From contig NZ_JAQNDK010000005.1 of the NCBI RefSeq assembly GCF_028368935.1, positions 930,001 to 994,000 on the forward strand: 64,000 nucleotides of DNA. Direction: 5' to 3'. This DNA comes from Sorangium aterium (GTDB taxonomy: Bacteria; Myxococcota_A; Polyangia; Polyangiales; Polyangiaceae). Position 1 is the stretch's first letter. Each line of letters opens with the position of its first letter. The position numbers were made by a program, and so were the translations under genes. The notes below the pieces were generated by a model, which was given only the letters and a program-made list of their open reading frames with translations, made no database searches and was not told the origin of the DNA. This document shows positions 12,235-27,567 of this stretch, in pieces.

Positions 12235-12777
12235 GCTGAGTTCCTCCCTGCCGACCGGGGGATCCGGACGGCGGCAATGAGAACAGAAGCTACAATGGGT
12301 GTTTCGACGATTGGAAGAGGATTGTTGCGCGCGCGCGGCTGAGCAACCGTCGGTTTTTTGCTCTACCGGCTCGGCATGGTCAGCGCTCCATGGATCCGGC
12401 GGCACCATCAACGAGAGCGCTCGATTCGATAACACGCGATGACGCGCGATACGATAACACGCGATAACACGTGATGACACGTGATGACACGCGGCGGACC
12501 AGGCCGGAGAAAGCCATTCCTGCAGCCATGGCCCCCGAGCGTGCAGCCACGGCTCCCGCCTGCGCAGCCATGCTCTCGGGGAGCGCAGCCGCACCCGCAG
12601 GCGCCCATGATTTTCTCGAGACCGATCACTTTTCTGAGAAATCGGGCGCGCAGGGTCGATGGTACCCGTGGACGGCAGGAGAGCGACGACCCCCTTCGGA
12701 TGTCACGCCCGGGATCCGTCGCCGCCGCCGTCTCATGCCTGCGCTCATGCCCGCGCTTGCTGGAGAGGAACCTGGCC
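12235..12777. other. 543-bp divergent intergenic region
   Basis: It contains the phased decamers (12428-12492) and a set of imperfect repeats around gcagccatgg (12522-12595). A translated frame through this stretch gives Pro/Arg-rich sequence without ribosome sites, so I see no gene. Promoters for both flanking genes are presumably here, but no clear -35/-10 pair stands out. Confidence 0.6.
12428..12492. repeat. Six helically phased decamers (GATRACRCGY)
   Basis: Units start at 12428, 12438, 12453, 12463, 12473 and 12483. Each is a variant of GATAACACGC or GATGACACGT, interrupted once by a half unit at 12448-12452. The 10-bp period keeps all units on one face of the helix. The array lies in the 543-bp divergent gap between the unknown gene (start 12234) and the kinase operon (start 12778). 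A cooperative protein-binding site is a reasonable inference. It is too short and lacks spacers for CRISPR. Confidence 0.7.
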
Positions 12778-13305
12778 GTGACCGCCCGCAGCTCGATCGA
12801 ATGCTCGCTCGCGACTGTGCCCCTGGACGAGGTCCTTCGCGCCGGCGAGGGCGCCGCCGGGCCGCCGGGTCGCGTCGCGCCCCCTCGGGCCCCGCTGATC
12901 ACCGCGCCGCTTCCCGTGTCGTTTCGCCCGGATTCGCCTCTTCCGTGGCAGCCGTCCCAGGCGCCGCCCGCTTCCGTGGCGACGGCGCCGGTGCCCGTGG
13001 CGACGGCGCCGTCGCCGTTCGCGCCGGTCGCACCGGCGGCCGTCACGCGACCTGTCGTGACGCGACCCATCGTGACGCGACCCATCGTGACGCGACCCAT
13101 CGTGACGCGACCCATCGTGATCGAAGTGCCCTGTCCTCCGGTCCGCCGGGCTCCACGCTCCGATCCGACGGAGGGGCGCGCGTGCTCCGCGCGGGCGCTC
13201 GCTCCGCGTCCGCCAGCGCCGGTGGCCAGCTGGCTCGCCGTCGCCGCGACCGCGGCGTTCTTTGGTATGGTCGGCGCGCTCTTGATGCGGGGGTGGCTTG
13301 GATGA
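12778..13305 (+). CDS. Pro/Ala-rich tail-anchored membrane protein, first gene of the kinase operon
   Basis: From GTG 12778, preceded by GGAGAGG, the product has 175 residues. Most of it is a Pro/Ala/Val-rich, probably disordered cytoplasmic stretch. It contains repeated VTRPI units from a 15-bp tandem repeat (13042-13120). The C-terminus is a single hydrophobic helix (WLAVAATAAFFGMVGALLMR), which suggests a tail anchor. Its TGA overlaps the ATG of the Ser/Thr kinase by 4 bp (13302-13305), so the two are coupled. It may serve as a membrane partner or substrate of that kinase; Thr residues in the repeats would be available (inference). No family is known. Confidence 0.6.
   Translation: MTARSSIECSLATVPLDEVLRAGEGAAGPPGRVAPPRAPLITAPLPVSFRPDSPLPWQPSQAPPASVATAPVPVATAPSPFAPVAPAAVTRPVVTRPIVTRPIVTRPIVTRPIVIEVPCPPVRRAPRSDPTEGRACSARALAPRPPAPVASWLAVAATAAFFGMVGALLMRGWLG
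13042..13120 (+). repeat. 15-bp tandem repeats inside the tail-anchored protein gene
   Basis: The unit CGTGACGCGACCCAT is repeated four times perfectly, with a diverged unit on the 5' side. It encodes VTRPI pentapeptides. The repeat length is a multiple of three, so changes in copy number would keep the frame. Confidence 0.85.
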
Positions 13306-15320
13306 GTCAGGGCGAGCTCAGCACGCGAGACGACGACGCCGGGACGTCCTCGCCGCCGGCGACCTATCTTCCGGGGAGCACCGTCGCGGGCCACAGGCTC
13401 GTGCGGATGATCGGCGCGGGCGGCGTCGGCGTCGTCTACGAGGCGGTCCACGAGTTCACGCAGCGGCGGGTCGCGCTCAAGCTGTTGCTCCCGCATTACG
13501 CGAGCTCCGAGCAGGTGCGCGAGCGCGCCCACAAGGAGGCCATCGCGCTCTGCCGGCTGCGGCACAAGAACATCGTCGCCGTGCACAGCGCCGACGCGCT
13601 GCCCGACGGCACGGTCTGGATCGCCATGGAGCTCCTGGAGGGCCAGTCGCTCCGCCGGATCTGCCAGGTGGAATCGCCGCTGCCAATCGCGCGGGCGCTC
13701 CACGTCGGGATCGAGATCGCCGACGGCCTCGCGGCGGCGCACGACCTCGGGATCGTGCACAGGGACGTGAAGCCGGAGAACGTGTTCGTCGACCGGCACG
13801 GCGAGGTCAAGCTGCTCGACCTGAACATCGCGAAGATCCGGGTCGACGGTCTGCCGAGCACCCGGCCGGGCCAGCGGTTCGGCACGACGGCGTACACGGC
13901 GCCGGAGGAGTGCTGGGGAGAGCCGTGCTCGCCGGCGAGCGACGTCTACGCGCTGTCGCTGGTGATCTACGAGCTCCTGGCCGGCCGTTACGTGTTCGCC
14001 ACGGGCCGGGGTCTCTCGGGGATGCCCAGCGAGGGCCAGCTCGTCGCGGCGCACATGCTGCGGATGCCGGTGCCAGTGCACGAGATCGTGCCGTCGATCC
14101 CGGACTACGTCTGGCCGGTGGTCCAGACCGGCCTGGCGAAGCGGCCGGCCGAGCGCTTCAGGCACGCCGGCGCGGCGGCGAGCGCGCTGCGCGAGCTCCG
14201 GGAGCGCTACCTGTCGGACGTGCGCGCCGGCCGGCTCGCCGCGGGGCCGGACCCAGGGACGCCCGGGGCCCGGCGGGAGCACCACGGTCCGCGATCGCCC
14301 GAGCGGCTGATCACGGCGCCGCAGCCCGACGAGAGTCGGGTGATCGTCCCCGGGCCGGCAGCCTCGGCCGAGCTCGGCGGGAGCGATGCGCGCGAGGACG
14401 CGGACACGGCGCCGGCGGCGCGCGAGGAGGACGCGGCGCACGCTGCGCGCGAGGAGGGCACGGCGTGGCCGGCGCAGCCTTCGGCTCCTCCGTGGCACCC
14501 GCCGCCGAGCGTGCCGCCGGGGGCCGACCCGGGCTGGCCGCTGCTCGTGACCCCCGGGCCGGTCACGGTGCGATCGTCCCCGGGAGCCCAGGGAGCGAGC
14601 CTCGTGGGACCTGGTCTGCCGGCGACGGACCGCGTCGCCGACCGGCGCTGGCGAATGCAGCTCCTGCGCCGCTGCGCCGTCGCGGCGGTGCTGGCGATCG
14701 CCGTCTCGGGCGCCGCGACAGCGCTGTACATCCATGTGCGCCGCGAGCGCCCTGCGATGGCCGCCTCCGAGAGCGGGGCCGTGCCGGCCGCGTCCGCCGG
14801 CGGGGTCGTCGCGAGCGCGCCGGCGGCGCCGGCGCGCTCCAACGCCATGCACGCCACGCGCGCCGCCCACGAGACCGGGGCGCCGCCGGAGGCGCGCGTG
14901 CCGGAGAGCGCAGCCGAACCCCTCGGCGTCGAGGCGTCCGAGGCCGCGCTGTCACCTCCCGCCGAATCCACGGGAACGGCGGCCCGAGCGAGCGCGCCTG
15001 CGGAGGCGAGCGCGCCTGCGGAGGCGAGCACGCCGGCGCAGACGAGCGTGCCGGCGCCGCCGAGCGTGCCGGCGTCGCCGAGCGCGCCGGCGACACGGGC
15101 GCGTCCGGTCGCGGGGGCGGGGCGAGCGCCCGCACGGCGCCCGTGGGACTGGCTTCTCACGTCGAAGGGGCGGGGCGGGCAGAAGGACATCTCCCCGGAC
15201 GAGGAGGAGGACATCTACCCGATGCCCTCGAGCGGGCGCGCCCCGGCGCCGGCCCGGCCGGCACCGCCCCGGGAGAGACGACACGAGGAGCTGCCGTTCG
15301 GGAACAAGCCCAATTTCTGA
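13302..15320 (+). CDS. Transmembrane serine/threonine protein kinase (Hanks type)
   Basis: This 672-residue kinase has a glycine loop GAGGVGVVYEA (38-48), catalytic Lys60 (VALKLLL), HRDVKPEN (153-160), and DLN (173-175) in place of DFG, with the metal-binding Asp retained. APEE (about 194-197) and the SDVYALSLVIYELLAGRY block follow. After residue 300 comes a Pro/Ala-rich linker, one membrane span (AVAAVLAIAVSGAATALYI, about residue 460) and a long Ala/Pro/Ser-rich exterior region with repeated EASAPA. This is a PknB-like topology without PASTA repeats. It is translationally coupled to the tail-anchored protein gene and followed within 36 bp by a small gene and a sigma factor, suggesting the kinase governs that sigma factor or its regulator (inference). 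Confidence 0.92.
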   Translation: MSQGELSTRDDDAGTSSPPATYLPGSTVAGHRLVRMIGAGGVGVVYEAVHEFTQRRVALKLLLPHYASSEQVRERAHKEAIALCRLRHKNIVAVHSADALPDGTVWIAMELLEGQSLRRICQVESPLPIARALHVGIEIADGLAAAHDLGIVHRDVKPENVFVDRHGEVKLLDLNIAKIRVDGLPSTRPGQRFGTTAYTAPEECWGEPCSPASDVYALSLVIYELLAGRYVFATGRGLSGMPSEGQLVAAHMLRMPVPVHEIVPSIPDYVWPVVQTGLAKRPAERFRHAGAAASALRELRERYLSDVRAGRLAAGPDPGTPGARREHHGPRSPERLITAPQPDESRVIVPGPAASAELGGSDAREDADTAPAAREEDAAHAAREEGTAWPAQPSAPPWHPPPSVPPGADPGWPLLVTPGPVTVRSSPGAQGASLVGPGLPATDRVADRRWRMQLLRRCAVAAVLAIAVSGAATALYIHVRRERPAMAASESGAVPAASAGGVVASAPAAPARSNAMHATRAAHETGAPPEARVPESAAEPLGVEASEAALSPPAESTGTAARASAPAEASAPAEASTPAQTSVPAPPSVPASPSAPATRARPVAGAGRAPARRPWDWLLTSKGRGGQKDISPDEEEDIYPMPSSGRAPAPARPAPPRERRHEELPFGNKPNF

Positions 15321-15355
15321 GGGTGAGCGCAGAGCAACGACCAAGGAGCGAAGAC

Positions 15356-15619
15356 ATGTCGAACGACGAGCCCAGCGCGACCGATCCCTTCCTCGACGAG
15401 GTCGTCGAGCGGACGCTCGCGCGCTACCGCGGGATCGCGTCGCACGACGTGATCGAGACCATGCGCGAGCTGCTCGTGGAGGCGCTCACCGAGGACGAGG
15501 TCGGGCGGGACCTCCTGGAGCGCGCGCGGCCTCGCGCGGCGCCGCTCGGGAGCGGCGTGGCGGCCCGGGACGGCGCCGTGGAGCCCCGGCGCAAGGCGGG
15601 GGGCGGCGACAATGGCTGA
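15356..15619 (+). CDS. Small protein between the kinase and sigma genes
   Basis: ATG 15356 with AAGGAGCG upstream gives 87 residues. The sequence is helical and acidic in its first two thirds (DPFLDEVVERTLARYRGIAS; then DVIETMRELLVEALTEDEVG), followed by a basic Arg/Gly tail. It has no Cys, signal or span. It overlaps the sigma-factor start by 8 bp. Size, charge and position fit a sigma-binding adaptor or anti-sigma-type regulator, but this rests on context only; no family match is recognised. Confidence 0.62.
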   Translation: MSNDEPSATDPFLDEVVERTLARYRGIASHDVIETMRELLVEALTEDEVGRDLLERARPRAAPLGSGVAARDGAVEPRRKAGGGDNG

Positions 15620-16319
15620 CCCCGAGGCGAGGCTCACGCCGGCGCAGCAGGCGCTCGCGGCGTCGGCGCTGCACGAGGTGAGCGGCGCGGCGCGCCGGCT
15701 TTCGCCGAGGCTGCGAAGGCACCTCTCGTTCGACGAGCTGATGTCGCTCGGCCGTGCGGGGCTCATCGAGGCGGCGCTCGCCTACGATCCGGCGCGGGAC
15801 GACAGCTTCCCGCGCTTCGCACGGCACCGTATCCGGGGCGCGATGCTCGACGGGTACCTCCGGGAGGCGCGGGAGCAGGACCGGGTGGTCGCGCTCTGCC
15901 TGCAGGGCGGGTACGACTACATCGCGCGGCAGCGGCGGTCCGGCGACGTGATGACCGACGTCGACGGCAAGGCGGAGGAGCGGCTCCTCGACCATGTCGA
16001 CGGCCTCGCGGCGAGCGTCTTCGCGACGGCCGCCGGCGTGGCGACGCCGGAGACCGGAGAGGAGGCGCTGTCGCGGCGCGAGCGCCACGGCCGGGCGCAC
16101 GCGCTGCTGCGGCGCACCCTGGAGCGGCTGACGCCGCGCGAGGCCGAGGTGCTGTCGATGCGCTACGTGGAGGGGCGGCCGCTCGCGGAGATCGGCGGCG
16201 CGCTCCGGATCCCGCACCCGGGCGCGTACCGGGTCCACGACCGGGCGATCGTGCGGCTCGGCAAGCTGCTGCGCGCGGCCGGAGTGACCGAGCCGCCGCC
16301 GCGCGAGGACGAGCTGTGA
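15612..16319 (+). CDS. Alternative sigma-70-family factor (regions 2 and 4)
   Basis: The 235-residue product has sigma region 2 (HLSFDELMSLGRAGLIEAAL then YDPARDDSFPRFARHRIRGA and MLDGYLRE, residues 38-85) close to FliA/WhiG/SigB-type group 3 factors. Region 4 has an HTH (LTPREAEVLSMRYVEGRPLA then EIGGALRI, residues 176-203). Classical region 3 is replaced by about 85 residues without similarity. It overlaps the preceding small gene by 8 bp and lies in the kinase operon. Its target promoters are unknown; the operon's own lipoprotein genes are natural candidates (inference). Confidence 0.85.
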   Translation: MADPEARLTPAQQALAASALHEVSGAARRLSPRLRRHLSFDELMSLGRAGLIEAALAYDPARDDSFPRFARHRIRGAMLDGYLREAREQDRVVALCLQGGYDYIARQRRSGDVMTDVDGKAEERLLDHVDGLAASVFATAAGVATPETGEEALSRRERHGRAHALLRRTLERLTPREAEVLSMRYVEGRPLAEIGGALRIPHPGAYRVHDRAIVRLGKLLRAAGVTEPPPREDEL

Positions 16320-16428
16320 GCGGGCGGCGGGCGGGCGGGTCGATCGGGGATGAGAAAGATGAGAAGTCGCGCGCGCAGGGACGATGGATCGCGGTGAGGG
16401 GCCGGCGGCACGGACAGGAGGCGAGGCG

Positions 16429-17472
16429 GTGAAGGACGAGGACCGGGACGAGCGCGGGGAGCGCGAGGCGGAGGGAGGCGCGGCGAGCGAGCCGGATGCC
16501 GGCGCGCCGGCCAGCCCGGCGCCGATGCCGAACCAGCTGGTGTCGCACCCGGCGTTCCGGACGGGGGTGATCTACATCGAGCCGGAGCTGCGCGACGAGG
16601 TGGAGGCGTACTGGAAGGCGTACGCGGCGTGGGAGAGGACGAAGCACGGGCCGCCGCCGCGGGAGCCGCGCGTGAACGTGCGGGTGGACCACGAGGAGAA
16701 GCCGAGCACGGCGGCGCGGCTGCGCGAGGCGATGGCGCCGCGCAAGGGAGCGGCGAAGCGGGGCGGAGGGAAGAGCGGCGCTGGGGAGAGCGCCGGGGAG
16801 AAGAGCGGCGGGGGGAGCCCGTGGGCGGCGGATGCGGCGGCAGCGGCGGCGGTGATCGACAAGAGCGCGCTGCCGTCGGCGCACCGGCCGAGGAGCGAGG
16901 CGGCGGAGGAGAAGGACGGCGGCGAGACCGACGCCAGGCCGGGGAAGGCGCGGCGCGCCGGGACGGTGGCGGCGATGCTGGCGCTGGCGGCGGGGATCGG
17001 TGCCGCGGCGATGTGCGGGGCGAAGGAGCGGGCGCCGGCGGGGAGCGCGGCCGTGGCGAGCGCGGCGGCGCGGAGCGGCGCAGTAAGCAATGCGGCCGTG
17101 GCGCACGGCGCAGCGAGCGATGCGGCGGCGAGCAGCGCGCCTACGGAGAGCGCACCGCCAACTGTCGCGGAGAGCGCGCCCGAGAGAGCGCAGGCCGAGG
17201 CGTCCGCCGAACGCGCTGCGCCTGCCGTGGTTTCCGATCGCGATGAAGCCGTGCGCACCGCGCGCCGGCGGCCCGCTCCCGAGACGCACTCACCGGCGCC
17301 GAGGACGCCCGAAGCGCAGGCGCCGACCGCGCAGCCTTCGCTCAAGCACTCCGAGGGCGCCACCACGGGGCAGAGGGGGCCCTCGATGCCTGCGTCATCG
17401 CAACCGCCCATGTCACCGCCGGCCGCGCCGTCGCAACCGCCATCCTACGTCGAAGGAATCCCGGAGTTCTGA
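16429..17472 (+). CDS. Acidic/Ala-rich membrane protein of the kinase operon
   Basis: GTG 16429 has a strong AGGAGG site 7 bases upstream; ATG 16384 in the same frame is the alternative. The 347-residue product starts with an acidic disordered stretch. A short folded segment follows (QLVSHPAFRTGVIYIEPELR then DEVEAYWKAYAAWERTKHGP). A Gly/Lys region leads to a single hydrophobic span (GTVAAMLALAAGIGAAAMCG) and a long Ala/Ser/Pro tail. This layout mirrors the kinase (cytoplasmic part, one span, low-complexity exterior). Its stop lies 2 bases before the next start. Function unknown. Confidence 0.68.
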   Translation: MKDEDRDERGEREAEGGAASEPDAGAPASPAPMPNQLVSHPAFRTGVIYIEPELRDEVEAYWKAYAAWERTKHGPPPREPRVNVRVDHEEKPSTAARLREAMAPRKGAAKRGGGKSGAGESAGEKSGGGSPWAADAAAAAAVIDKSALPSAHRPRSEAAEEKDGGETDARPGKARRAGTVAAMLALAAGIGAAAMCGAKERAPAGSAAVASAAARSGAVSNAAVAHGAASDAAASSAPTESAPPTVAESAPERAQAEASAERAAPAVVSDRDEAVRTARRRPAPETHSPAPRTPEAQAPTAQPSLKHSEGATTGQRGPSMPASSQPPMSPPAAPSQPPSYVEGIPEF

Positions 17473-17474
17473 CC

Positions 17475-18551
17475 ATGAAGAAGCCTGTATTGCTGTGCTC
17501 GCTCGGCCTGGCGATCGCGCTGCTCGCACCCGCCAGCAGCGCCCAATCCGGCGCCGAGGCGCGAAGCGCGACGGAGACGGAGGCGCTGACGGACAAGGCG
17601 CGGCAGCTGTATGACGAGGGGTTCGCGGCCCTCAACCGATCGCGATGGGCCGAGGCACACGCGGCGTTCCTGGCGGCATGGCGCATCAAGCAGCACTACC
17701 AGATCGCGTCGAACCTCGGCGTGGCCGAGCTGCGGCTCGGCAAGCACCGCGACGCCGCGGAGCACCTGTCGTGGTACCTGCGCGAGGCGCCCGAGGAGAG
17801 GACGGCTCAGCGGCAGCGCGCCGAGATATTGTTGAAGGAAGCGCTGGCGAAGGTCGCGGCGATCACGATCACCACGGAGCCGGAAGGCGCGGAGGTGAAG
17901 GTCGACGGGGCCGCGGTCGGGCGGACGCCGCTCGCGCTGCCGGTGTTCCTGGAGCCAGGACGGCACGTGATCGGCGCGGAGCTCGACGGGTACAAGCCGG
18001 GGCAGGAGCAGATCGAGCCGGCGGCGGGCCACGCGGGCGGGATCACGCTGCACCTGGCCCGAAGGGATGCGGAGGCGCCCGCCGCAGCGGGCGCGCCGGC
18101 AGCGGCGGGGCCGCGGGCGGCGAGCGACGCGCCTCCAGCGAAGCGGCCGGAGACCACCGCAGCGCCGCCGGCAGCGCGGAGCTGGGTGCCGGCGATCGCG
18201 CTGGGAGCGGCGAGCGTGGTCGGGCTCGGCGTAGCGGTGGGATTCACGGTGGCGTCGAACGATGCGAGCGCGGAGAAGGACGAGCGGAAGAAGGGCATTT
18301 TGCGAGAGGGTGGGCAGTGCGTTGAGCCCTCGGCGGCGTTCGTCGAGCGATGCAAGGCGTTGCGCAGCACGGGATCGCGTGCCGACACGTTCGGCAATGG
18401 GGCGCGCGTTGCGTTCATCGCCTCAGGCGCGCTCGCCGCCGCTGCGGCGACGTATCTGCTGTGGCCGCGCGCCGATGCGCTCGTATCGGGAACCGTGCTG
18501 CCGGAAGTGCGCGCGGACGGCGCGAGGATCACCGTGTTCGGTGCGTTTTGA
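17475..18551 (+). CDS. Exported TPR-PEGA protein (copy A)
   Basis: The 358-residue protein has a Sec signal (MKKPVLLCSLGLAIALLA, cleavage near SSAQ). Residues 40-110 form TPR-like helices (ARQLYDEGFAALNRSRWAEA; HYQIASNLGVAELRLGKHRD). A PEGA domain follows (ITITTEPEGAEVKVDGAAVG then RTPLALPVFLEPGRH, residues 134-172). The C-terminal part has two hydrophobic segments (AIALGAASVVGLGVAVGF and VAFIASGALAAAAATYLLWP). PEGA domains are linked to surface or cell-wall attachment. It follows the previous gene by 2 bp and precedes the Gly-rich lipoprotein by 19 bp. A paralogue (copy B) lies at 23358-24509, also followed by such a lipoprotein. Confidence 0.83.
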   Translation: MKKPVLLCSLGLAIALLAPASSAQSGAEARSATETEALTDKARQLYDEGFAALNRSRWAEAHAAFLAAWRIKQHYQIASNLGVAELRLGKHRDAAEHLSWYLREAPEERTAQRQRAEILLKEALAKVAAITITTEPEGAEVKVDGAAVGRTPLALPVFLEPGRHVIGAELDGYKPGQEQIEPAAGHAGGITLHLARRDAEAPAAAGAPAAAGPRAASDAPPAKRPETTAAPPAARSWVPAIALGAASVVGLGVAVGFTVASNDASAEKDERKKGILREGGQCVEPSAAFVERCKALRSTGSRADTFGNGARVAFIASGALAAAAATYLLWPRADALVSGTVLPEVRADGARITVFGAF

Positions 18552-18570
18552 TGCGCTGCGAGAGGATGCC

Positions 18571-20148
18571 ATGAGGATGCGGAGAAGGCACCGGTGCTTG
18601 GTCGGCGTGGTTCTTGTCATCTTGAGCAGCGGGTGCGCGTCGTTCTGGAGCGACATCGCCGGAGACTGCGAGGAGATGCTCACGTGCGAGCACTTCCGCC
18701 CGACGGCCAGCAGCGGTAGCGGGCCACACGCAGGGTGCGTGCCGAGCGAGAGCGCGGACGCCGTGAGCGATGCGTGCGGCGTGTTCGTCGCGGCGAGCGG
18801 GAACGACGGGAGCGCGGGGACCAAGGCGGAGCCTGTCAAGACGCTGACCGAGGCGATCGCGCGAGCGGCGGACCAGAGGACGGCCGTGTACGCATGCGCC
18901 GAGGCGTTCGCCGAGGTGGTCGAGGTGCCCGCGAGCGCGACGCTCTTCGGCGGGCTGGACTGCGCGAACGGGTGGCGCTGGATCGGCGAGGAGAAGAAGA
19001 CGATCGTGGCGCCGGGGGTGGAGGCGATCCCGCTGAAGCTCGTGCGAGGCGAGGGCGCGATGCGGATCGAAGACTTCTCGGTGCGCGCCTCGGATGCGCA
19101 GGCGGCAGGGAGCTCGTCGATCGCGGTGCTGGCGGCTGGCGCGACGGTCGAGTTGACGCGGTGCGAGCTGATCGCAGGCAACGGGGCCAACGGCGCGGAC
19201 GGAGAGGACGCGCCGAGCGAGGCGGCGATGCAGGGGCCGCGAGGAGAGGACGGAGCCAGCGCGTGCAGCGATCTGGATGCGTCGGGCGCACCGGACGAGA
19301 CGCTCGCGGGAGGAGCTCAGGTCGAGAGCGTATGCGGGGACGGCGCGCTGTCGATAGGCGGTGCGGGCGGCGTCGGCAACGTGAGCAACGGAAGTGATGG
19401 CGCGACAAGTCAAGGCACCGCGGAGACCGCACGCGGCGGGCTCGGCGAATCGGTCACGGGCGCCTGGGATTGTGCTGGCGCCGAGCCCAACGGTGGCGGC
19501 GACGCCGGAGTGAGCGGTGGCGCTGGCGACGCCGGCGTCGGGGCGAGCGGCAACGGGACGCTGAGCGCCTCCGGCTATGCGGGCGTGAGCGGTGGCGCGG
19601 GTGGCGCAGGCAAGCCCGGACAGGGCGGTGGCGGAGGTGGCGGCGCGAAGGGCGGGGCCATCTGTCCAGGCGCCGCGACTGGAGCCGGAGCGAGCGGCGG
19701 AAGCGGCGGCGCCGGCGGCTGCGGCGGGCTTCCTGGACGAGGCGGCGGAGCCGGCGGCGCGAGCATCCCGCTGGTGAGCGTGGAGGGAAAGGTGACGCTG
19801 ACGGATTGCTCGCTGAAGGCGGGCAGCGGAGGCAAGGGAGGCGCGGGCGGCGATCTGCAGCCGGGTGGATCCGGCGGCGTGGGTGGACTCGGCGGCATGG
19901 GCGTTGGCGGCTCGAACCCCGCATGCGATGGCGGCAGGGGAGGCAAAGGCGGCAACGGCGGCCCTGGCGGCGGAGGTCTCGGAGGACCGTCGCTTGCGAT
20001 CGCGTTCCGCGGTGAGCCGGTGAAGCAGGAAGGCAAGACGGTGCTGATGGCCGGTACGCCGGGGGCGGGTGGGCCTGGCGGGAGCAACAACGTGGCGAGC
20101 AACGGCGGAGCTGACGGCGTGACGGCTGCGGAGCGAGAGCTTCCGTGA
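18571..20148 (+). CDS. Gly-rich beta-helix-type surface lipoprotein (copy A)
   Basis: The 525-residue product starts at ATG 18571, preceded by GAGAGG. Its lipobox is VILSSGC (Cys22). Residues 65-200 match the DUF1565-like opening of parallel beta-helix proteins: CGVFVAASGNDGSAGTKAEP, then VKTLTEAIARA, and FGGLDCANGWRW. From about residue 205 the chain is dominated by GGAGG/GGNG segments, interrupted by short beta-rich inserts (IPLVSVEGKVTLTDCSLKAG). Family knowledge suggests an outer-surface, possibly adhesive or Ca-binding, protein. It ends the kinase operon. Copies B and C are more like each other than like this one. Confidence 0.8.
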   Translation: MRMRRRHRCLVGVVLVILSSGCASFWSDIAGDCEEMLTCEHFRPTASSGSGPHAGCVPSESADAVSDACGVFVAASGNDGSAGTKAEPVKTLTEAIARAADQRTAVYACAEAFAEVVEVPASATLFGGLDCANGWRWIGEEKKTIVAPGVEAIPLKLVRGEGAMRIEDFSVRASDAQAAGSSSIAVLAAGATVELTRCELIAGNGANGADGEDAPSEAAMQGPRGEDGASACSDLDASGAPDETLAGGAQVESVCGDGALSIGGAGGVGNVSNGSDGATSQGTAETARGGLGESVTGAWDCAGAEPNGGGDAGVSGGAGDAGVGASGNGTLSASGYAGVSGGAGGAGKPGQGGGGGGGAKGGAICPGAATGAGASGGSGGAGGCGGLPGRGGGAGGASIPLVSVEGKVTLTDCSLKAGSGGKGGAGGDLQPGGSGGVGGLGGMGVGGSNPACDGGRGGKGGNGGPGGGGLGGPSLAIAFRGEPVKQEGKTVLMAGTPGAGGPGGSNNVASNGGADGVTAAERELP

Positions 20149-20354
20149 GCGCTCTGGTGCGGGCATGCCGAGCGCCGTGAAGCGCGACGCCGACATCGCG
20201 GCGTGACGTGGTGTGAGGTGAGGTGGAGACGCGGGCGCAGATCGCGCGCGCACAGGTGAGGTGTGCCGTGCGGCAGCGTGCGGCGTGTCGAGGGCAAGGC
20301 GTGGGACGAGGGCAGCGATGGGAACGATGAGCAGCAAGACGGACAGCAAGGGTT

Positions 20355-20424
20355 CCCTTCCCGTCCTGCGCCAACTGCGGGATGCGGGAGGGGCCGGTGG
20401 TGCGGAGGCGCGAAGCGCCGAGCG
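20355..20424. repeat. Intergenic hairpin element, copy 1
   Basis: About 70 bp, with an imperfect stem cccttcccgtcctgcgc / gcgggatgcgggagggg and then the small palindrome GGCGCGAAGCGCC. A clear homologue lies at 23376-23443 upstream of the PEGA copy B gene, with the same order of stem and palindrome. Copy 1 lies in the leader of lipoprotein copy B (start 20480). It may be a terminator/attenuator pair or a mobile palindromic repeat (inference). Confidence 0.65.
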
Positions 20425-20479
20425 CCGACAGGGGCACGTGATGACGGCCGGCGGCTGTTCGTCCTGGGGGAGAGATACG

Positions 20480-22067
20480 ATGCAGCACAGGTTGTGGACC
20501 TCTGCGATGTTGATCGTGGCGGGCGTAACGCTCGGAGCTCACGTTGGGGGCTGCTTCTTCGCTGCGCCAGACTGCATGCTCGGGATGTGCCTGGATGCGC
20601 TGCCATCCGGCGAGGGAGGTGGCGGCGGCAGCAACGCCGCGTGCGAGGCGGATCCGACGGAGGATGCGAGCACGTTGACGGAGGAGTGCGCGGTGTTCGC
20701 GAGCGCGAGCGCGATGCCGGGCGGCGACGGCACCAAGGCGAAGCCGTACGCGTCGCTCGCGGAGGCGGTGGCGAACGCGAACGGCAAGCGGGTGCTGGCG
20801 TGCGCGAGCGGGGCGTTCGCGGAGAGCGTGACGATCGGGGCGGAGGCCGAGGTGATCGGCGGCTTCGACTGCGACGCCGGCTGGACGTGGAGCGCCGAGG
20901 CGCGGAGCGTGATCGAGGGGCCCGCGGACAAGATCGCGCTGACGCTGACGGAGGGCGCGCGCGGGGCGAAGGTGCGTAGCTTCGCGGTGCGCGCGGCGAG
21001 CGCGACGGAGCCGGGCGGCTCGTCGATCGGCGTGGCGGTAGCCGACGTCGAGGCGGAACTCGCGCAGGTGGACGTGACCGCGGGCGACGGGATGGACGGC
21101 GAGAGCGGAACCACGCCGACGGAGGCGCCCGTGGCGGGAGCGAGCGCACCGGTGATGAGCGCGTCGAACGCGTGCAAGGCGCCGAACCAGGTCATCGGCG
21201 GGACCGCGGGCGCGACGACGTGCGAGGACGGCGAGACGCGCGGCGGAGACGGTGGGACCGGAGGGATCACGGGGACGGAGGAGGGCAACGGGCAGGCGGG
21301 GCGCGATGGAGAGCCGATGCCGGAGCCGAATCCGGAGGAGTACGGGCTCGGGGGGCGCGGGCAAACAGATCCTTCAGGCAACTGCCGAAGCGGTGTGGAG
21401 GGCGCGCCGGGTGCGCCTGGCGGTCCCGGGTCGGCCGGCAGCGGCACGGCGCTGACGCTCGCCGGGATCAGCGGCGGAGATGGCGGGCATCACCGGCGGC
21501 CGTGGTCAAGGGGGCGGAGGCGGCGGCGGTGCCAAGTCGGGGACGTTCTGCTTGCTCAACACGACCCTCGTCGATGGCGTGGGCGCCAGCGGCGGCGGAG
21601 GCGGTGCCGGTGGGTGCGGTGGGAAAGGCGGCGGCGGCGGTAAGGCCGGCGGGTCGAGCGTCGGGATCCTCAGCCTGGGCACGAAGCTGGTGCTGACGGA
21701 CGTCACCGTGGCGGTCGGAAAGGCGGGAAAGGGCGGGGATGGCGCGGCCGGCAAGGCTGGTGCGGCTGGTGGTGCAGGCGCGGCCGGTGGGGAAGGCTCC
21801 GGACAAGGCGATTCGAGGCGCGGCTGTCAGGGAGGAAATGGCGGTGACGGCGGCCGTGGGGGCTTCGGCGCGGGCGGTCGAGGCGGCCACGCCGTAGGCA
21901 TCGCCTATGCGGCGGGGCCGGGCGAAGGGCCCGCGGTACAGTTCACCGCGGGCACGGCGGGCGACGGCGGCGCCGCCGCGCCGGGCGGTCCGCCCGCAAG
22001 CGCCGGCGCACCGGGTGGGAGCGGGGTTTGCTGGGATTTCTCGGCGCAAGCGCCGTGTGGAGGATGA
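20480..22067 (+). pseudogene. Gly-rich beta-helix-type lipoprotein (copy B), frameshifted
   Basis: ATG 20480 follows GGGGGAGAGA. The lipobox is HVGGC (Cys25). The N-terminal half closely matches copy C: ECAVFASASA, GDGTKAKPYASLAEAVANAN, GKRVLACASGAFAESVTI and VIGGFDCDAGWTWSAEARS. At about 21485, after GISGGDGG, the frame is lost within a G-rich tract. The coding continues in another frame from about 21486 (GITGGRGQGGGGGGGAKSG) to the conserved end GVCWDF...stop at 22067. Relative to copy C the net difference is equivalent to a loss of two bases (or five). The intact length would be about 528 residues. It may be a true pseudogene, a phase-variable gene or a sequencing error in a hard region. 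Confidence 0.72.
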
Positions 22068-22072
22068 GCACG

Positions 22073-22459
22073 ATGAGCGCACCGAACCACATCCGAACCG
22101 CTCTGAAGGCCCCGGACGCCTCTCTCGACCGGTGGATGGATCCGGTGTGGTGCGCGACGACGCCGCCGGCGGAGAAGCAGCGGCTCGCGGAGAAGCGTGC
22201 CCGACGGGTCATGGAGATCTATGGGGTCGAGGACCCCCGGATGGAGGCGCTGCTCGTGCGGCTCGCGAGCCAGGTGGAGCAGTGGGCCACCGAGGAGCGA
22301 GCCACCATGCAGGAGGCGGACGACGAGGCGTGGGTGAGCGCGGTGCCGGACAAGGGCGAGACCGAGCGGCGCAGCTCGCGCCTGGCGCTGCTCGGCGCGG
22401 TGCTCTTCGTGCTGGCGGTGGTGTGCGGCGTGGTGCTGGCGGTGCTGCGGCTGCGCTGA
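22073..22459 (+). CDS. Small protein with C-terminal membrane anchor
   Basis: ATG 22073, with TGGAGG 9 bases upstream, gives 128 residues. A soluble helical part (PPAEKQRLAEKRARRVMEIY; MEALLVRLASQVEQWATEER) is followed by a basic stretch and a C-terminal span (LALLGAVLFVLAVVCGVVLA). This is another tail-anchored protein, like the first gene of the operon. It lies 5 bp after lipoprotein B and upstream of PP2C copy 1. The second cassette lacks a counterpart between lipoprotein C and PP2C copy 2. Function unknown; a docking factor for the phosphatase is a guess from position. Confidence 0.65.
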   Translation: MSAPNHIRTALKAPDASLDRWMDPVWCATTPPAEKQRLAEKRARRVMEIYGVEDPRMEALLVRLASQVEQWATEERATMQEADDEAWVSAVPDKGETERRSSRLALLGAVLFVLAVVCGVVLAVLRLR

Positions 22460-22473
22460 GGTAGCGACGTAGC

Positions 22474-22498
22474 GAAGGCCGCGTGTGGCGCGGCCTTC
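22474..22498 (+). terminator. Hairpin after the small anchored protein gene
   Basis: A perfect 10-bp stem (GAAGGCCGCG / CGCGGCCTTC) with a 5-base loop (TGTGG), 15 bp after the stop at 22459. There is no U-run, which is common in GC-rich genomes. It separates this gene from PP2C copy 1. Confidence 0.7.
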
Positions 22499-22582
22499 TC
22501 CGATCTGAACGAACGCGCGCCGCTGTCTACGGCGCGCCATGGCTCGGCTCGTCCCGAAGACGAGCGCGCGAGGAGGACGAAG

Positions 22583-23356
22583 GTGTATCCACAGCTCGCC
22601 ATCGAGGCGGCAGCGCATTCCGACGTGGGCCGGCGCCGTAGCCACAACGAGGACAGCTTCGCGGCGCTGCCGTGCGTGGGGCTGTTCATGGTGGCCGATG
22701 GGCTCGGCGGCAACGCGGCCGGAGAGGTGGCGTCCCGCATGGCGATCGAGGTCGTCAAGAGCTGCTTCGAGGAGGGCGAAGAGCTCGAGGAGACGTGGCC
22801 GTACGGCACAGCGACGCCGCACGATCGGGACGAGGTGCGGCTTGTGCTGAGCGTGCGGCGCGCCAACCGCGCGATCTACGAGGCCAGCCAGCAGCAGGAG
22901 GTGCGCGGCATGGCGACGACCTTCGCGGGCGTGCTGCTCGGGCGCGGCATGGCGTACATCGCGCACGTGGGCGACTCGCGCGTCTACCGGATGCGCGGGG
23001 GCCGACTGGAGCGGCTGACGCGGGATCACACGTTGCTGGAAGAGCTGCTCGGCGACAGCGACGGAGCGCGGGAGGCGGTCGAAGCGCTGAGCGAGCGTGC
23101 GAGCGTGGTCACGCGGGCGCTGGGATGCGAGAAGAGCGTGGACATCGAGTCGCGTGTGGAGGCGACGAAGCCGGGCGATCTGTTCCTGGTGTGCTCGGAC
23201 GGGCTATGGGGCCCTGTGCCCGAGGCGCGGATCGAGGGGGTGTTGGGGAGGCACCGTGACCTGAGCCTCGCCGCGAGCCTGCTTGTCGATATCGCGAACG
23301 AGAACGGAGGGCCGGACAACGTGACGTGTGTGCTGGCGCGGCTGGGAGGTGGCTGA
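22583..23356 (+). CDS. PP2C-family serine/threonine phosphatase (copy 1)
   Basis: GTG 22583, preceded by AGGAGG, gives 257 residues, the size of a bare bacterial PP2C (PstP/Stp type). It has all metal-site motifs: RRRSHNEDSF, FMVADGLGGNAAGEVAS, GMATTFAGVLL, AHVGDSRVYRMR, LTRDHT, LVCSDGLWGPV and GGPDNVTCVLARL. It is cytoplasmic, with no membrane anchor. It is predicted to dephosphorylate targets of the kinase at 13302 (established pairing of Hanks kinases with PP2C; the link here is inferred from the cluster). A near-identical but frameshifted copy lies at 26579-27350, and the similarity includes about 40 bp of upstream DNA. Confidence 0.94.
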   Translation: MYPQLAIEAAAHSDVGRRRSHNEDSFAALPCVGLFMVADGLGGNAAGEVASRMAIEVVKSCFEEGEELEETWPYGTATPHDRDEVRLVLSVRRANRAIYEASQQQEVRGMATTFAGVLLGRGMAYIAHVGDSRVYRMRGGRLERLTRDHTLLEELLGDSDGAREAVEALSERASVVTRALGCEKSVDIESRVEATKPGDLFLVCSDGLWGPVPEARIEGVLGRHRDLSLAASLLVDIANENGGPDNVTCVLARLGGG

Positions 23357-23357
23357 G

Positions 23358-24509
23358 GTGGTTGCGAGGGACGCACCCCTCCCGTCCCGCGCGGAGCGCG
23401 GGACATGGGAGGGGCGGGCCGCGCGCAGGCGCGAAGCGCCGAGCACGGACCGGGGGTGGGCATCCATCCTTCGTCGTGGCGCTCCGATCGCCAGCTTCGT
23501 GGCCTTGGTGTGCTGCGCAGCGCCGGGCAGGACGCAGCCGGGGGAGGCGGAGACGGTGGCGATGACGGAGCAGGCACGGAAGCTGTTCAAAGAGGGCGTG
23601 GCAGCGTTCGAGCAGTCGCGCTGGGCGGAGGCGCGGGCGGCGTTCCTGGCGGCGCTGGCGCTGAACGGCCACTACACGATCCGCGGCAACCTGGCCGCGG
23701 CGGAGCTGAAGCTGGGCCGTTATCGAGACGCGACGGAGCACCTGGCGAGGTGCGTGCGGGAGATGGCGGAGGACGCGACGAGCACGGCGGAGGAGCGCGC
23801 CCGAGGGGAAGCGGCGTACGCGGAGGCGCGGGCGAAGGTGGGGACGCTGGTGGTGCGCACCAAGGTGGACGGGGCGCGCGTGTTCGTGGACGGCACATTG
23901 CGGGGGCTGACGCCGCTGGCGGATCCGCTGTTCGTCGAGCCGGGGGCGCACACGATCTCGGTGGAGCACGAGGACTACGAGACGAAGAAGATGACGGTGC
24001 AGCTCGTGGCCGGCGGGCAGATCGAGAATGGGGTAGAGCTTCGGCAGAGATCGGCGGGTGCACCACCGCCGAAGCGGCTGGACACGACCATGGCGCCGCT
24101 GGCCCGCGGCGCCGAGGAGCACGCCCGCGATCCAAGGACGGCGCTGCTGATCGGCGGCGCGGCGACGGCGGGGGCGGCGGTGGTGGCGGGGGTGGTGTTC
24201 ACGGTGCTGGCGAACGCGAACGCCAGCGACGCGGAAGAGCAGCGAAGCCTGCTGCACCAAGAGGGCGGCTTGGATGCGTGTAAGGCTCCCGGAGCACCTC
24301 CGCGATGCACGGAGCTGAAGGACGCCGTCGCCGCTCGCTACGACTTCAGCAACGCGGCGTTCTGGAGCTTCGTCGGTGCGGGGACGGTCGGGGTCGGAAC
24401 ACTCGTCTATGGCCTCATCTCGCGCTCCCCGGTGAACGAGCGGCGCGTGCATGTAGCGCCTCTCGTCGGGTCGAACGGCCTCGGGATTGGAGTACGCGGT
24501 GGCTTCTGA
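23358..24509 (+). CDS. Exported TPR-PEGA protein (copy B); start uncertain
   Basis: This paralogue of the 17475 gene has TPR-like repeats (ARKLFKEGVAAFEQSRWAEA; GHYTIRGNLAAAELKLGRYR) and a PEGA domain (VVRTKVDGARVFVDGTLRGL then TPLADPLFVEPGAHTISVEH). It also has a hydrophobic segment (LIGGAATAGAAVVAGVVFTV) and a second near the C-terminus. A signal-like stretch (PIASFVALVCCAAPGRTQ) starts about 23490, but no ATG/GTG lies just before it in frame. GTG 23358 is the nearest in-frame candidate and would force translation through the hairpin at 23376-23414. The true start, or a small indel here, is unresolved. Lipoprotein C follows 31 bp downstream. Confidence 0.72.
   Translation: MVARDAPLPSRAERGTWEGRAARRREAPSTDRGWASILRRGAPIASFVALVCCAAPGRTQPGEAETVAMTEQARKLFKEGVAAFEQSRWAEARAAFLAALALNGHYTIRGNLAAAELKLGRYRDATEHLARCVREMAEDATSTAEERARGEAAYAEARAKVGTLVVRTKVDGARVFVDGTLRGLTPLADPLFVEPGAHTISVEHEDYETKKMTVQLVAGGQIENGVELRQRSAGAPPPKRLDTTMAPLARGAEEHARDPRTALLIGGAATAGAAVVAGVVFTVLANANASDAEEQRSLLHQEGGLDACKAPGAPPRCTELKDAVAARYDFSNAAFWSFVGAGTVGVGTLVYGLISRSPVNERRVHVAPLVGSNGLGIGVRGGF
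23376..23443. repeat. Intergenic hairpin element, copy 2
   Basis: The stem is CCCCTCCC plus GTCCCGCGC against GCGCGGGAC plus GGGAGGGG, with only a 2-base bulge and a 3-base loop (23376-23414). It is followed by GGCGCGAAGCGCCGAGC. It is homologous to copy 1 (20355-20424). It starts 19 bp after the PP2C stop, so it could terminate that gene, and it lies before the PEGA copy B coding sequence. Confidence 0.75.
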
Positions 24510-24540
24510 GCAGGGCGTAGGGGATCGAGGAGAGAGAAGC

Positions 24541-26121
24541 ATGCGTCGGACTGCTCGCGGTGTCTCGGTGCTCATTCTGGGGGTGATGGTTGCGGGCAGC
24601 CAGCCGCTGGGATGCTTCCCGTATGTGATGCCGGACGACTGCACGCTCACGCTCGTGTGCGACGTAGGCAGCGGTGAGGGAGGTGGCGGCGGCGGCAACG
24701 CTGTGTGCGAGGCGGATCCGACCGAGGACGCGAGCACGGTGACGGAGGAGTGCGCGGTGTTTGCGAGCGCGAGCGCCGAGGCGGGTGGGGATGGGACGAA
24801 GGCGAAGCCGTACGCGTCGCTCGGGGAGGCGATCGCGAACGCAAACGGCAAGCGGGTGCTGGCGTGCGCGAGCGGAGCGTTCGCGGAGAGCGTGACGATC
24901 GAGGTCGGCGTCGAGGTGATCGGGGGCTTCGACTGCGGCGCGGCGTGGACGTGGAGCGCAGAGGCGCGAAGCGCGATCGAGGCGCCCGCGGACAAGATCG
25001 CGCTGGCGCTGACGGAGGGCGCGAGCGGGGCGAAGGTGCGTAGCTTCGCGGTGCGCGCGGCGAGCGCGATGGCGCCGGGCGGGTCGTCGATCGGCGTGGC
25101 GGTGGCGGATGTGGAGGCGGAGCTGGCGCACGTGGACGTGACCGCGGGCGACGCGACGGACGGTGCGAAGGGCGAGACGCCGGCGGAGGCGCCGCAGGCA
25201 GGCGCGAGCGCGGGGGCGGTGGGGAACGCGTGCGGCCTCGTCCTCGGTGGCGAACCCGGCGTGACCACGTGCGACGACGGCGACACCAGCGGCGGCCGAG
25301 GCGGGCGCGGTGGCACCCCGGGGCTGGAGGACGGCAACGGGTTACGCGGGGAGGACGGCGCGCCGTTGCCGGACCCGAACCCAAACAACAAGGGGCTCGG
25401 TGGCATCGGTCAAACGGATGCCGTTGAGGAGTGCAGACGTGGCGAGGACGGCAAGAGCGGCGATCCCGGCACGGTCGGCGCCGCCGGCAACGGCACGACG
25501 CTGACGCTGACCGGCATCGTCGGCGGTGACGGTGGCAACGGCATATCCGGGAAGCGAGGTCAAGGGGGAGGTGGCGGCGGTGGCGCCAGGGCCGGCCTGT
25601 TCTGCGCGGTCGACGCGGGCACCGTGGAGGGCCCCGGCGCCAGCGGCGGAGGCGGCGGCGCCGGCGGGTGCGGAGGTAAAGGAGGAGGCGGAGGCAAGGC
25701 GGGCGGGTCGAGCGTCGGGATCCTCAGCCTGGGCACGAAGCTGGTGCTGACCGACGTGACCGTCGCCGTGGGCAAGGCGGGCAAGGGCGGCGATGGAGTG
25801 GTCGGCGTACCCGGTGGCACTGGAGGCAGTGGCGGGACGGGCGGTCAGGCTTCCGGCAAGGTGGGCTCAATCCCCGGCTGCGATGGCGGTCGAGGCGGTC
25901 GAGGCGGCGATGGTGGCCCCGGCGCCGGCGGTCGAGGCGGCCACGCGGTGGGCATCGCCTATGCGGCGGGTCCGGGCGAAGCGCCGGCGGTGCAGTTCAC
26001 CCCCGGTACGGCCGGCGACGGCGGCAGCGCCGCGCCCGTCGGTCCGCCGGAGAGCGCCGGGGCGCCGGGTGTGAACGGGGTTTGCTGGGATTTCGGGTCA
26101 GGTCGATCGTGTGAAAATTGA
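24541..26121 (+). CDS. Gly-rich beta-helix-type surface lipoprotein (copy C)
   Basis: The 526-residue product starts at ATG 24541 after GGAGAGAAGC. It has a signal with lipobox QPLGC (Cys25). The beta-helix opening (ECAVFASASAEAGGDGTKAK then PYASLGEAIANANGKRVLAC, and VIGGFDCGAAWTWSAEARSA) is nearly identical to copy B. The C-terminal half is Gly-rich, with conserved inserts (SSVGILSLGTKLVLTDVTVA; GGHAVGIAYAAGPGEAPAVQ) and the shared end GVCWDF. This is the intact member used to locate the frameshift in copy B. It lies directly downstream of PEGA copy B, as copy A lies downstream of PEGA copy A. Confidence 0.82.
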   Translation: MRRTARGVSVLILGVMVAGSQPLGCFPYVMPDDCTLTLVCDVGSGEGGGGGGNAVCEADPTEDASTVTEECAVFASASAEAGGDGTKAKPYASLGEAIANANGKRVLACASGAFAESVTIEVGVEVIGGFDCGAAWTWSAEARSAIEAPADKIALALTEGASGAKVRSFAVRAASAMAPGGSSIGVAVADVEAELAHVDVTAGDATDGAKGETPAEAPQAGASAGAVGNACGLVLGGEPGVTTCDDGDTSGGRGGRGGTPGLEDGNGLRGEDGAPLPDPNPNNKGLGGIGQTDAVEECRRGEDGKSGDPGTVGAAGNGTTLTLTGIVGGDGGNGISGKRGQGGGGGGGARAGLFCAVDAGTVEGPGASGGGGGAGGCGGKGGGGGKAGGSSVGILSLGTKLVLTDVTVAVGKAGKGGDGVVGVPGGTGGSGGTGGQASGKVGSIPGCDGGRGGRGGDGGPGAGGRGGHAVGIAYAAGPGEAPAVQFTPGTAGDGGSAAPVGPPESAGAPGVNGVCWDFGSGRSCEN

Positions 26122-26578
26122 AGAGCCCTGGAGGCAATGAGCTTCTCCCGAGAAATCAAGGGCAACATCGCTTCAGGAGGCTGGACGTAGAGAGCGCCCA
26201 GGCAGTACTTTCCGGCGTGCTGCGGCAACGCGGGTCGGTGGGCTGCTCGGGGCTAACAACACTGCTGAGAAAGCGTGGGTGTCGGGCGGGTGGGCCGGTG
26301 GTCTGCTGAAATCCTCCACTGCTTCGTTAGGCCTATAGTCGGGATATCTATCCAAAGGCCATTGGCAGCAGCTCGGGAGAAGCGGACCCGTTTGGGGCCC
26401 GGCGCCTGACGGGGACGAGCGAACGCCGTGCGCGCGTGCGCCGGCGTGGCCCACGCGCGCTGAGCGGGAGCCAGCGCCTCGTGCGCTGAGGTGGTCGTGA
26501 GGAGGATTGAGCGAGCCGCGATATGCGGCGCGCCATGGCTCGGCTCGTCTTGGCGACGAGCACGCGAGGAGGACGAAG
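26122..26578. other. 457-bp intergenic region before PP2C copy 2
   Basis: The last 50 bp (26530-26578) are nearly identical to the DNA before PP2C copy 1, including cgccatggctcggctcgtc and the AGGAGG site. The rest is unlike the first cassette, which has an anchored-protein gene in this place. AT-richer DNA near 26320-26355 (aggcctatagtcgggatatc) may hold a promoter, but no clear -35/-10 pair is seen. Confidence 0.55.
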
Positions 26579-27350
26579 GTGTATCCACAGCTCGCCATCG
26601 AGGCGGCGGCGCATTCGGACGTGGGCCGGCGCCGTAGCCACAACGAGGACAGCTTCGCCGCGCTCCCCTGCCTCGGGCTCTTCATGGTGGCCGATGGGCT
26701 GGGCGGCAACGCGGCCGGCGAGGTCGCGTCGCGCATGGCCATCGAGGTCGTCAAGAGCTGCTTCGAAGTGGCCGAAGACCTCGAGGAGACCTGGCCCTAC
26801 GGCACGGGGAGCTCGCACGACCGCGACGAGGTGCGGCTGGTAATGAGCGTCCGCCGCGCCAACCGCGCGATCTACGACGCGAGCCAGCGGCAGGAGCGGA
26901 CACGCGGCATGGCGACGACCTTCGCGGGCGTGCTGCTCGGAGCGGGGATGGCGTACATCGCGCACGTCGGCGACACGCGCGTCTACCGCATGCGCGGCGG
27001 CAAGCTGGAGCGGCTGACCCGGGATCACACGCTGCTGGAGGAACTGCTCCACGGTGGCGAGAGCGCGCGCGCTCAAGGCACTGAGCGGGCGCGCGGACGC
27101 GGTGACCCGAGCTCTCGGGTGCGACAAGAACGTGGAGATCGAGTCGCGCGTCGAGCCGACCCAACCGGGCGACGTCTTCCTCGTCTGCTCAGACGGGCTG
27201 TGGGGCCCTGTGCCCGAGGCGCGGATTGAGCGCGTGCTCGGGAGGCACCGCGACCTGAGCCTCACGGCGAGCCTGCTGGTCGACATCGCCAACGAGCACG
27301 GCGGGCCGGACAACGTGACGTGCGTGCTGGCACGCCTGGGAAGCGGGTGA
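26579..27350 (+). pseudogene. PP2C-family phosphatase (copy 2), frameshifted
   Basis: GTG 26579 follows AGGAGG. The first 160 residues are intact (RRRSHNEDSF, VADGLGGNAAGEVAS, GMATTFAGVLL, HVGDTRVYRMR, LTRDHTLLEELL). At 27060-27072 a run of alternating GC (agcgcgcgcgctc) breaks the frame. The rest continues in another frame (ALKALSGRADAVTRALGCDK, LVCSDGLWGPV, GGPDNVTCVLARLGSG) to a stop at 27350. Compared with copy 1, one extra GC dinucleotide would restore a full 257-residue phosphatase. Without repair the product lacks two metal-binding motifs. Dinucleotide slippage, a sequencing error or decay are all possible. Confidence 0.75.
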
Positions 27351-27408
27351 CGTGATGAGCGATGGCGCAGAGATGGGTGTGGACGGGGAGAAGCCGAGCA
27401 CGGCGGGC

Positions 27409-27445
27409 ACGGTGAGGTGCGTGCTGGCGCGCCTGGGAGGCGGGG
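27409..27445 (+). repeat. Duplicated fragment of the PP2C 3' end
   Basis: Bases 27411-27445 (gtgaggtgcgtgctggcg...) repeat, with a few changes, the last 35 bases of PP2C copy 2 (from 27315, gtgacgtgcgtgctggca). The fragment encodes the terminal VRCVLARLGGG again. It lies within 100 bp of the original and shows local rearrangement of this cassette. Confidence 0.65.
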
Positions 27446-27567
27446 CGAGACGGCGCGCTGTGGCAGGCGCGACGAAGGGCGGATTCGAGGAGATGCCTTG
27501 GGTCGGGCAGCACAAGGCCGGGCTCCGCGGTGCACCGGACAAGAAGGCTCACGTTTCAGGAGGGAAC

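What the first reader, a model, noticed from the sequence alone, without database searches (positions are those of the whole stretch)
12778..20148. Kinase, sigma factor, TPR-PEGA and Gly-rich lipoprotein in one compact operon
Seven genes in one direction have gaps of -8 to about 110 bp (two coding overlaps, one 2-bp gap): a tail-anchored protein, a transmembrane Hanks kinase, an 87-residue protein, a group-3-like sigma factor, a single-span Ala-rich protein, a TPR-PEGA exported protein and a beta-helix/Gly-rich lipoprotein. I know of no described pathway with this set. The arrangement suggests an envelope signal passing through the kinase to the sigma factor and on to a surface polymer or adhesin.
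Basis: partly seen in the sequence, partly recalled or inferred. Interest (0 to 1): 0.85.

Follow-up and report, generated by a model that had tools for sequence, protein, structure and literature searches.

The report
Kinase–sigma cassette with swappable surface/toxin units
In the soil myxobacterium Sorangium this gene cluster is one copy of a repeated cassette in which a membrane kinase and a sigma factor with a previously undescribed partner protein sit beside tandem surface-protein units, which in sister copies also carry type VI secretion toxins, so it probably tells the cell when to make its surface and weapon proteins.

Summary
The seven genes are real and are arranged as described. The window lies in a 13.5-Mb Sorangium genome. 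The set is not a one-off: the 87-aa protein and the sigma factor form an inseparable gene pair, usually overlapping by 4–8 bp (co-divergence r=0.90 over 45 loci), found only in Polyangiaceae. One lineage of the pair has no kinase and sits in a conserved neighbourhood. The rest are diverse paralogs, of which 22 of 29 have a Ser/Thr kinase within 4 kb, mostly followed by TPR-PEGA and Gly-rich lipoprotein genes. The cluster runs to about 27.35 kb, with a second PEGA gene, two more Gly-rich proteins and two PP2C phosphatase genes (one frameshifted). Sister loci carry VgrG/VRR-NUC toxin–TsiV immunity, PAAR or RHS genes in the same units; the window has none. A new ~93-nt covarying hairpin element closes the units (30 copies in four Sorangium genomes, 22 in these loci). 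Best reading: kinase and PP2C set the activity of a FliA/WhiG-like sigma factor through a small partner, switching on surface and T6SS-effector units. Genes and associations are shown; the signalling is inferred. New variant of kinase-controlled sigma factors.

The parts
12778..13305 (+). g1: 175-aa Pro-rich protein with one C-terminal TM segment (start uncertain)
   Evidence: homologs only in the two closest genomes (L031, L032)
13302..15320 (+). g2: transmembrane Hanks-type Ser/Thr kinase, 672 aa; TM near residue 454; HRDVKPEN present, DFG replaced by DLN
   Evidence: Pfam Pkinase 2.9e-38
15356..15619 (+). g3: 87-aa sigma-partner protein; three-helix domain (res 11-57) plus disordered tail with Ser66
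   Evidence: homologs in 52 genomes; Ser66 invariant in 51/51; AF2 pLDDT above 90 for the helices; no Pfam hit in any of 51 members
15612..16319 (+). g4: FliA/WhiG-like sigma factor, 235 aa, overlaps g3 by 8 bp
   Evidence: FliA, E=3e-35 along the length
16384..17472 (+). g5: Ala-rich single-span protein (start may be 16429)
   Evidence: homologs in L031/L032
17475..18551 (+). g6: TPR-PEGA exported protein, unit 1
   Evidence: Pfam PEGA 1.2e-11
18571..20148 (+). g7: Gly-rich lipoprotein, unit 1
   Evidence: lipobox-like N-terminus; family alignment A5 with invariant Cys
20353..20445 (+). structured hairpin element, divergent copy
   Evidence: covariance model R1, E=5.7e-8
20480..22067 (+). g8: second Gly-rich lipoprotein gene, frame broken near 21480
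22073..22459 (+). 128-aa single-span protein, same family as those preceding PP2C in sister loci
   Evidence: E=8e-39
22583..23356 (+). PP2C protein phosphatase
   Evidence: Pfam PP2C_2 7.8e-15
23374..23466 (+). structured hairpin element, consensus copy
23499..24509 (+). second TPR-PEGA protein
   Evidence: PEGA hit G000:C5:953841
24568..26121 (+). third Gly-rich protein of the lipoprotein family
26579..27347 (+). second PP2C gene, frameshifted near 27067

Best explanation
The locus is one copy of a Polyangiaceae regulatory cassette. A transmembrane Ser/Thr kinase senses an envelope signal and controls a FliA/WhiG-like sigma factor through the co-translated 87-aa partner, most likely an anti-sigma-like holder that lets go when it or the sigma factor is phosphorylated; the PP2C phosphatase resets the switch. 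The free sigma factor then transcribes the linked units (TPR-PEGA + Gly-rich lipoprotein, with PP2C and, in sister loci, VgrG/VRR-NUC toxin and TsiV immunity), each closed by a conserved hairpin element. Shown: the genes, their recurrence, the pairing and co-divergence of small protein and sigma factor, the T6SS and PP2C linkage, and the element. Inferred: phosphorylation, direction of control, target promoters, signal.
For: The small protein and sigma genes are adjacent (typically a 4-bp, here an 8-bp, overlap) in nearly all loci and co-diverge (Mantel r=0.90, n=45; r=0.71 among distant pairs) far more tightly than kinase (0.18), PEGA (0.28) or lipoprotein (0.08) at the same distances. 22 of the 29 sigmas outside the kinase-less clade have a kinase within 4 kb against ~28% by density (p about 1e-7). 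PEGA within 10 kb at 8 of 12 loci (0.61 expected) and PP2C at 4 of 12 (0.38 expected, p=5.5e-4). VgrG within 10 kb at 9 of 23 loci against 1.4 expected. The unit PEGA-LP-TM-PP2C-VgrG/VRR-NUC-TsiV or close variants of it occur in L034/L096 and L093/L108; PAAR-deaminase in L033, RHS in L082/L106. T6SS sheath gene present in all six genomes tested. Precedent: PknS phosphorylates EcfK to switch on a T6SS (PMC13147305).
Against: No expression, phosphorylation or interaction data. The small protein matches no anti-sigma family or solved fold. One clade of pairs has no kinase nearby, so the pair can work without one. Some kinase-PEGA-lipoprotein clusters have no sigma pair (L089-L091). No promoter motif for the sigma factor was established. 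The window itself contains no T6SS gene, and g8 and the second PP2C are frameshifted.
Confidence: 0.5

Rival explanations
1. The kinase phosphorylates the sigma factor directly (EcfK-like), and the small protein is a positive partner (chaperone or core-binding helper), not an inhibitor.
For: Kinase adjacency. In the window lineage a Ser replaces the residue aligned with sigma-70 Gln406 in region 2.2; Ser occurs there in 12 of 22 kinase-linked and 8 of 27 other sigmas. Direct phosphorylation is established for EcfP and EcfK (PMC8999054, PMC13147305).
Against: The Ser association is not significant (Fisher p=0.09). The acidic residue whose loss makes EcfP phosphorylation-dependent is retained in nearly all members.
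Confidence: 0.3
2. The sigma pair regulates unrelated genes elsewhere; it sits beside kinases and PEGA-lipoprotein arrays because these genomes are rich in both and the arrays recombine at shared sequences.
For: Kinases are very dense (358 first-look candidates in 13.5 Mb); kinase and output genes co-diverge poorly with the sigma factor at larger distances; kinase-PEGA-lipoprotein clusters exist without the pair; the kinase-less clade has other neighbours.
Against: PEGA, PP2C and VgrG are enriched well above random placement in Pfam-based counts, and nearly all the closest lipoprotein relatives lie within about 26 kb of a pair (with a profile built from such loci).
Confidence: 0.2

Closest known systems
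PknS-EcfK of Xanthomonas citri (PMC13147305)
   Same: Transmembrane Hanks kinase with a cognate alternative sigma factor, tied to a type VI secretion system.
   Different: EcfK is an ECF (sigma2-sigma4) factor; here the sigma factor is FliA/WhiG-like, has an 87-aa partner of a new family, and T6SS effector units with PEGA and Gly-rich lipoproteins are linked in sister loci only.
EcfP-PknT, group ECF43 (PMC8999054)
   Same: Sigma factor gene beside a Ser/Thr kinase gene.
   Different: EcfP lacks the acidic DAED motif and is an ECF factor; this family retains the acidic residue and matches FliA along its length.
FliA/FlgM and WhiG/RsiG
   Same: Sigma factor family; a small partner (here encoded next to the sigma gene).
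   Different: The small protein has no detectable similarity to FlgM or any Pfam family; its helical domain is N-terminal with a disordered tail; membrane kinase and PP2C are linked.
TseV/TsiV T6SS effector-immunity pairs (PMC9635880)
   Same: VRR-NUC toxin domain and TsiV immunity in sister loci.
   Different: Here the toxin domain is fused to VgrG and embedded in PEGA-lipoprotein-PP2C units; the published TseV proteins have a PAAR-like N-terminus.

Membership tests
ECF43/EcfP-type phosphorylation-activated sigma factors | ECF architecture: sigma2 and sigma4 only | tested here: not met
   Family profile aligns to FliA residues 17-248 in one stretch, E=3e-35; long helical middle region in the model
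ECF43/EcfP-type phosphorylation-activated sigma factors | Loss of the acidic motif in region 2.2 | tested here: not met
   D/E retained at the position aligned to sigma-70 D403 in nearly all of 49 sigmas
ECF43/EcfP-type phosphorylation-activated sigma factors | Ser/Thr kinase encoded next to the sigma factor | tested here: met
   Window, and 22 of 29 sigmas outside the kinase-less clade
FliA/WhiG sigma factors | Similarity over regions 2 to 4 and curated model score | tested here: inconclusive
   Best NCBIfam model is FliA_WhiG (2.4e-21, 76.5 bits) but below its cut-off of 189.6 bits; FliA and WhiG structures among the best fold matches, with low global TM-scores of ~0.3
FlgM-type anti-sigma factors | Partner homologous to FlgM | tested here: not met
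   No Pfam family in any of 51 small proteins; no significant PDB sequence or fold match
FlgM-type anti-sigma factors | Binds and inhibits the sigma factor | not testable with these tools
   Only genomic pairing and co-divergence
PknS-EcfK-type kinase-sigma control of a T6SS | Kinase phosphorylates the sigma factor, which switches on T6SS genes | not testable with these tools
   Only gene linkage: kinase adjacent, T6SS effector genes in sister loci
T6SS effector island | VgrG, PAAR or RHS effector with immunity gene | tested here: not met
   Absent from the window locus (tblastn); present in sister loci such as L033-L035, L038, L044, L064, L069, L082, L093
Integron attC sites (considered for the hairpin element) | Terminal RYYYAAC/GTTRRRY core sites | tested here: not met
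   No such ends in the 29-copy alignment A7 (by inspection)
Rfam RNA families (considered for the hairpin element) | Match to a curated covariance model | tested here: not met
   No match up to E=1 in window 12300-28000

The most novel reading that the evidence does not exclude
A previously undescribed myxobacterial antagonism/self-recognition system: a fixed regulatory head (kinase, new sigma-partner family, group-3-like sigma factor, PP2C) commands an expandable array of surface-protein and T6SS toxin-immunity units, each ending in a conserved covarying hairpin that both terminates transcription and serves as the exchange point by which units are duplicated, lost and swapped between loci.
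Probability: 0.25. Interest if true: 0.85.

Novelty: new variant of a known kind. Interest (0 to 1): 0.63.

Why it matters
Myxobacteria carry hundreds of Ser/Thr kinases whose outputs are mostly unknown. This cassette ties a defined set of them to cognate sigma factors, a new sigma-partner family and, in many copies, to T6SS weapons and surface lipoproteins. That makes the question 'what do the kinases of large myxobacterial genomes control?' directly testable at about 20 loci, and suggests that kinase control of T6SS through a sigma factor may have arisen with a different sigma class from the one known in Xanthomonas.

Tried and rejected
EcfP-type mechanism: rejected because the acidic region-2.2 residue is retained. 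Ser at the Q406 position as a kinase-linked phosphosite: suggestive only, p=0.09. Kinase-sigma fusion in L034: apparent single ORF, but the codon-position GC pattern breaks where the small gene lies in another frame, so not a fusion; an in-frame small-sigma2 ORF in L065 exists but region 4 is frameshifted, so only weak support. Small-protein fold search: no match; sequence search of PDB: nothing significant. Search for a sigma promoter by shared upstream DNA: returned the hairpin element rather than a promoter. Element as integron attC or known RNA: rejected. Element as a 5' riboswitch: disfavoured, since copies outside the loci and last in arrays mostly lie between convergent genes.

Full report
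Observation. The seven + strand genes are present at the stated coordinates with gaps of -4, 35, -8, 64 (or 109), 2 and 19 bp. Pfam identifies a kinase, a sigma-70 factor and a PEGA domain; g1, g3, g5 and g7 match no Pfam family. A codon-usage gene caller finds g2-g7 but not g1, which is the weakest gene; it has homologs only in the two closest genomes (47% identity to the one in G102). The window is part of a 13.47-Mb genome. A same-genus genome of exactly 14,782,125 bp is S. cellulosum So0157-2 (PMC3696898; NC_021658.1), so the window is from Sorangium.

Extent. The genes tested beyond 30 kb are mostly metabolic or transport genes.

Recurrence. Homologs of the 87-aa protein occur in 52 of 184 genomes of the order, all in the same family. 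They lie next to a sigma gene of the g4 family in nearly every locus examined, typically with a 4-bp overlap. The sigma tree separates a lineage mostly in a conserved neighbourhood without kinases (20 rows, 19 without the module, support 100/100) from a diverse set. Of the 29 sigmas in that set, 22 have a kinase within 4 kb, and most are followed by PEGA and lipoprotein genes. In G102 the orthologous locus has nine lipoprotein-family hits in tandem (7224933-7247879). Random placement of loci in G100 and G102 gives p <= 5e-5 for PEGA and 5.5e-4 for PP2C within 10 kb. These counts use Pfam hits found independently of the loci; the lipoprotein profile was built from such loci, so its association is biased in favour.

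The pair. Small protein and sigma factor co-diverge (Mantel r=0.90, n=45; r=0.71 among sigmas under 50% identical), whereas kinase, PEGA and lipoprotein hardly follow the sigma at that distance (0.18, 0.28, 0.08). The pair is therefore the conserved core and the other parts look exchangeable. The small protein is predicted as a three-helix domain with a disordered tail. Ser66 in the tail is the only residue invariant in 51 of 51 sequences, including kinase-less copies. It has no Pfam, PDB-sequence or fold relative. The sigma family aligns to FliA over its whole length (E=3e-35), below the curated FliA/WhiG cut-off.

T6SS and phosphatase cargo. Sister loci carry PP2C plus VgrG with a VRR-NUC toxin domain and TsiV immunity (L034/L096, L093/L108), VgrG/VRR-NUC with TsiV (L064/L105), PP2C with VgrG and TsiV (L035), PAAR-deaminase with VgrG (L033/L103), or RHS/PAAR proteins (L082/L106). 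VgrG lies within 10 kb at 9 of 23 loci against 1.4 expected from genome densities (a Poisson estimate that ignores clustering of VgrG genes). T6SS sheath genes are present in all six genomes tested. The window locus itself has no T6SS gene.

Hairpin element. Comparing upstream regions exposed a ~93-nt element at unit boundaries. A covariance model finds 30 copies in four Sorangium genomes, 12 of 12 in G102 and 7 of 8 in G000 within these loci, 22 in all; there is one weak hit in G067 and none in G007 or G086. It is 97% paired against 33-54% for slid controls, with both-side changes in 6 pairs (41 cells against 13.5 in shuffles); array copies are related, so independent changes are fewer than cells. 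It follows a gene on the same strand, and copies outside the loci or last in an array mostly lie between convergent genes, which fits a terminator or 3'-end element.

Mechanism. The most economical model is kinase and PP2C acting on the small partner or the sigma factor, releasing sigma to transcribe the linked units. The EcfP mechanism is not supported because the region-2.2 acidic residue is retained. The precedent closest in logic is PknS-EcfK, where a membrane kinase phosphorylates a sigma factor to turn on a T6SS (PMC13147305). All regulatory steps here are inference.

Verdict. Real, recurrent, and broader than reported; a new variant of kinase-controlled sigma systems with a new partner family, new genomic linkage to T6SS effector units and a new structured element. 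Searches of the held open-access library found no description of it; most subscription papers are not in that library.

Noticed in passing
window 20353-20445 and 23374-23466; 30 copies in four Sorangium genomes: A ~93-nt structured element with covarying hairpins closes the units; no Rfam match. Likely terminator or 3'-end element, possibly a recombination point.
   Followed up: partly
L089, L090, L091: Kinase-(PEGA-lipoprotein) clusters without the small protein-sigma pair: a second lineage of the output units with other control.
   Followed up: no
L040:10676-11863, L050:10698-11873, L052:10744-11859, L065:8522-9739, L066:12663-14264: Tandem kinase pairs in which the first member lacks the HRD-type motif searched for (possible pseudokinase-kinase pairs); DFG is DLN or DFS in several kinases directly upstream of the sigma pair.
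   Followed up: no
L065:10004-10735: Small protein and sigma region 2 read in one frame without a stop, a possible natural fusion; region 4 follows in another frame.
   Followed up: partly
L028, L039, L041, L042, L043, L045, L047, L048, L058-L063: Kinase-less small protein-sigma pair in a conserved neighbourhood, apparently inherited vertically; its role is unknown.
   Followed up: partly
window ~21480 and ~27067: Frameshifts in g8 and in the second PP2C gene; decay or sequencing error not resolved.
   Followed up: no
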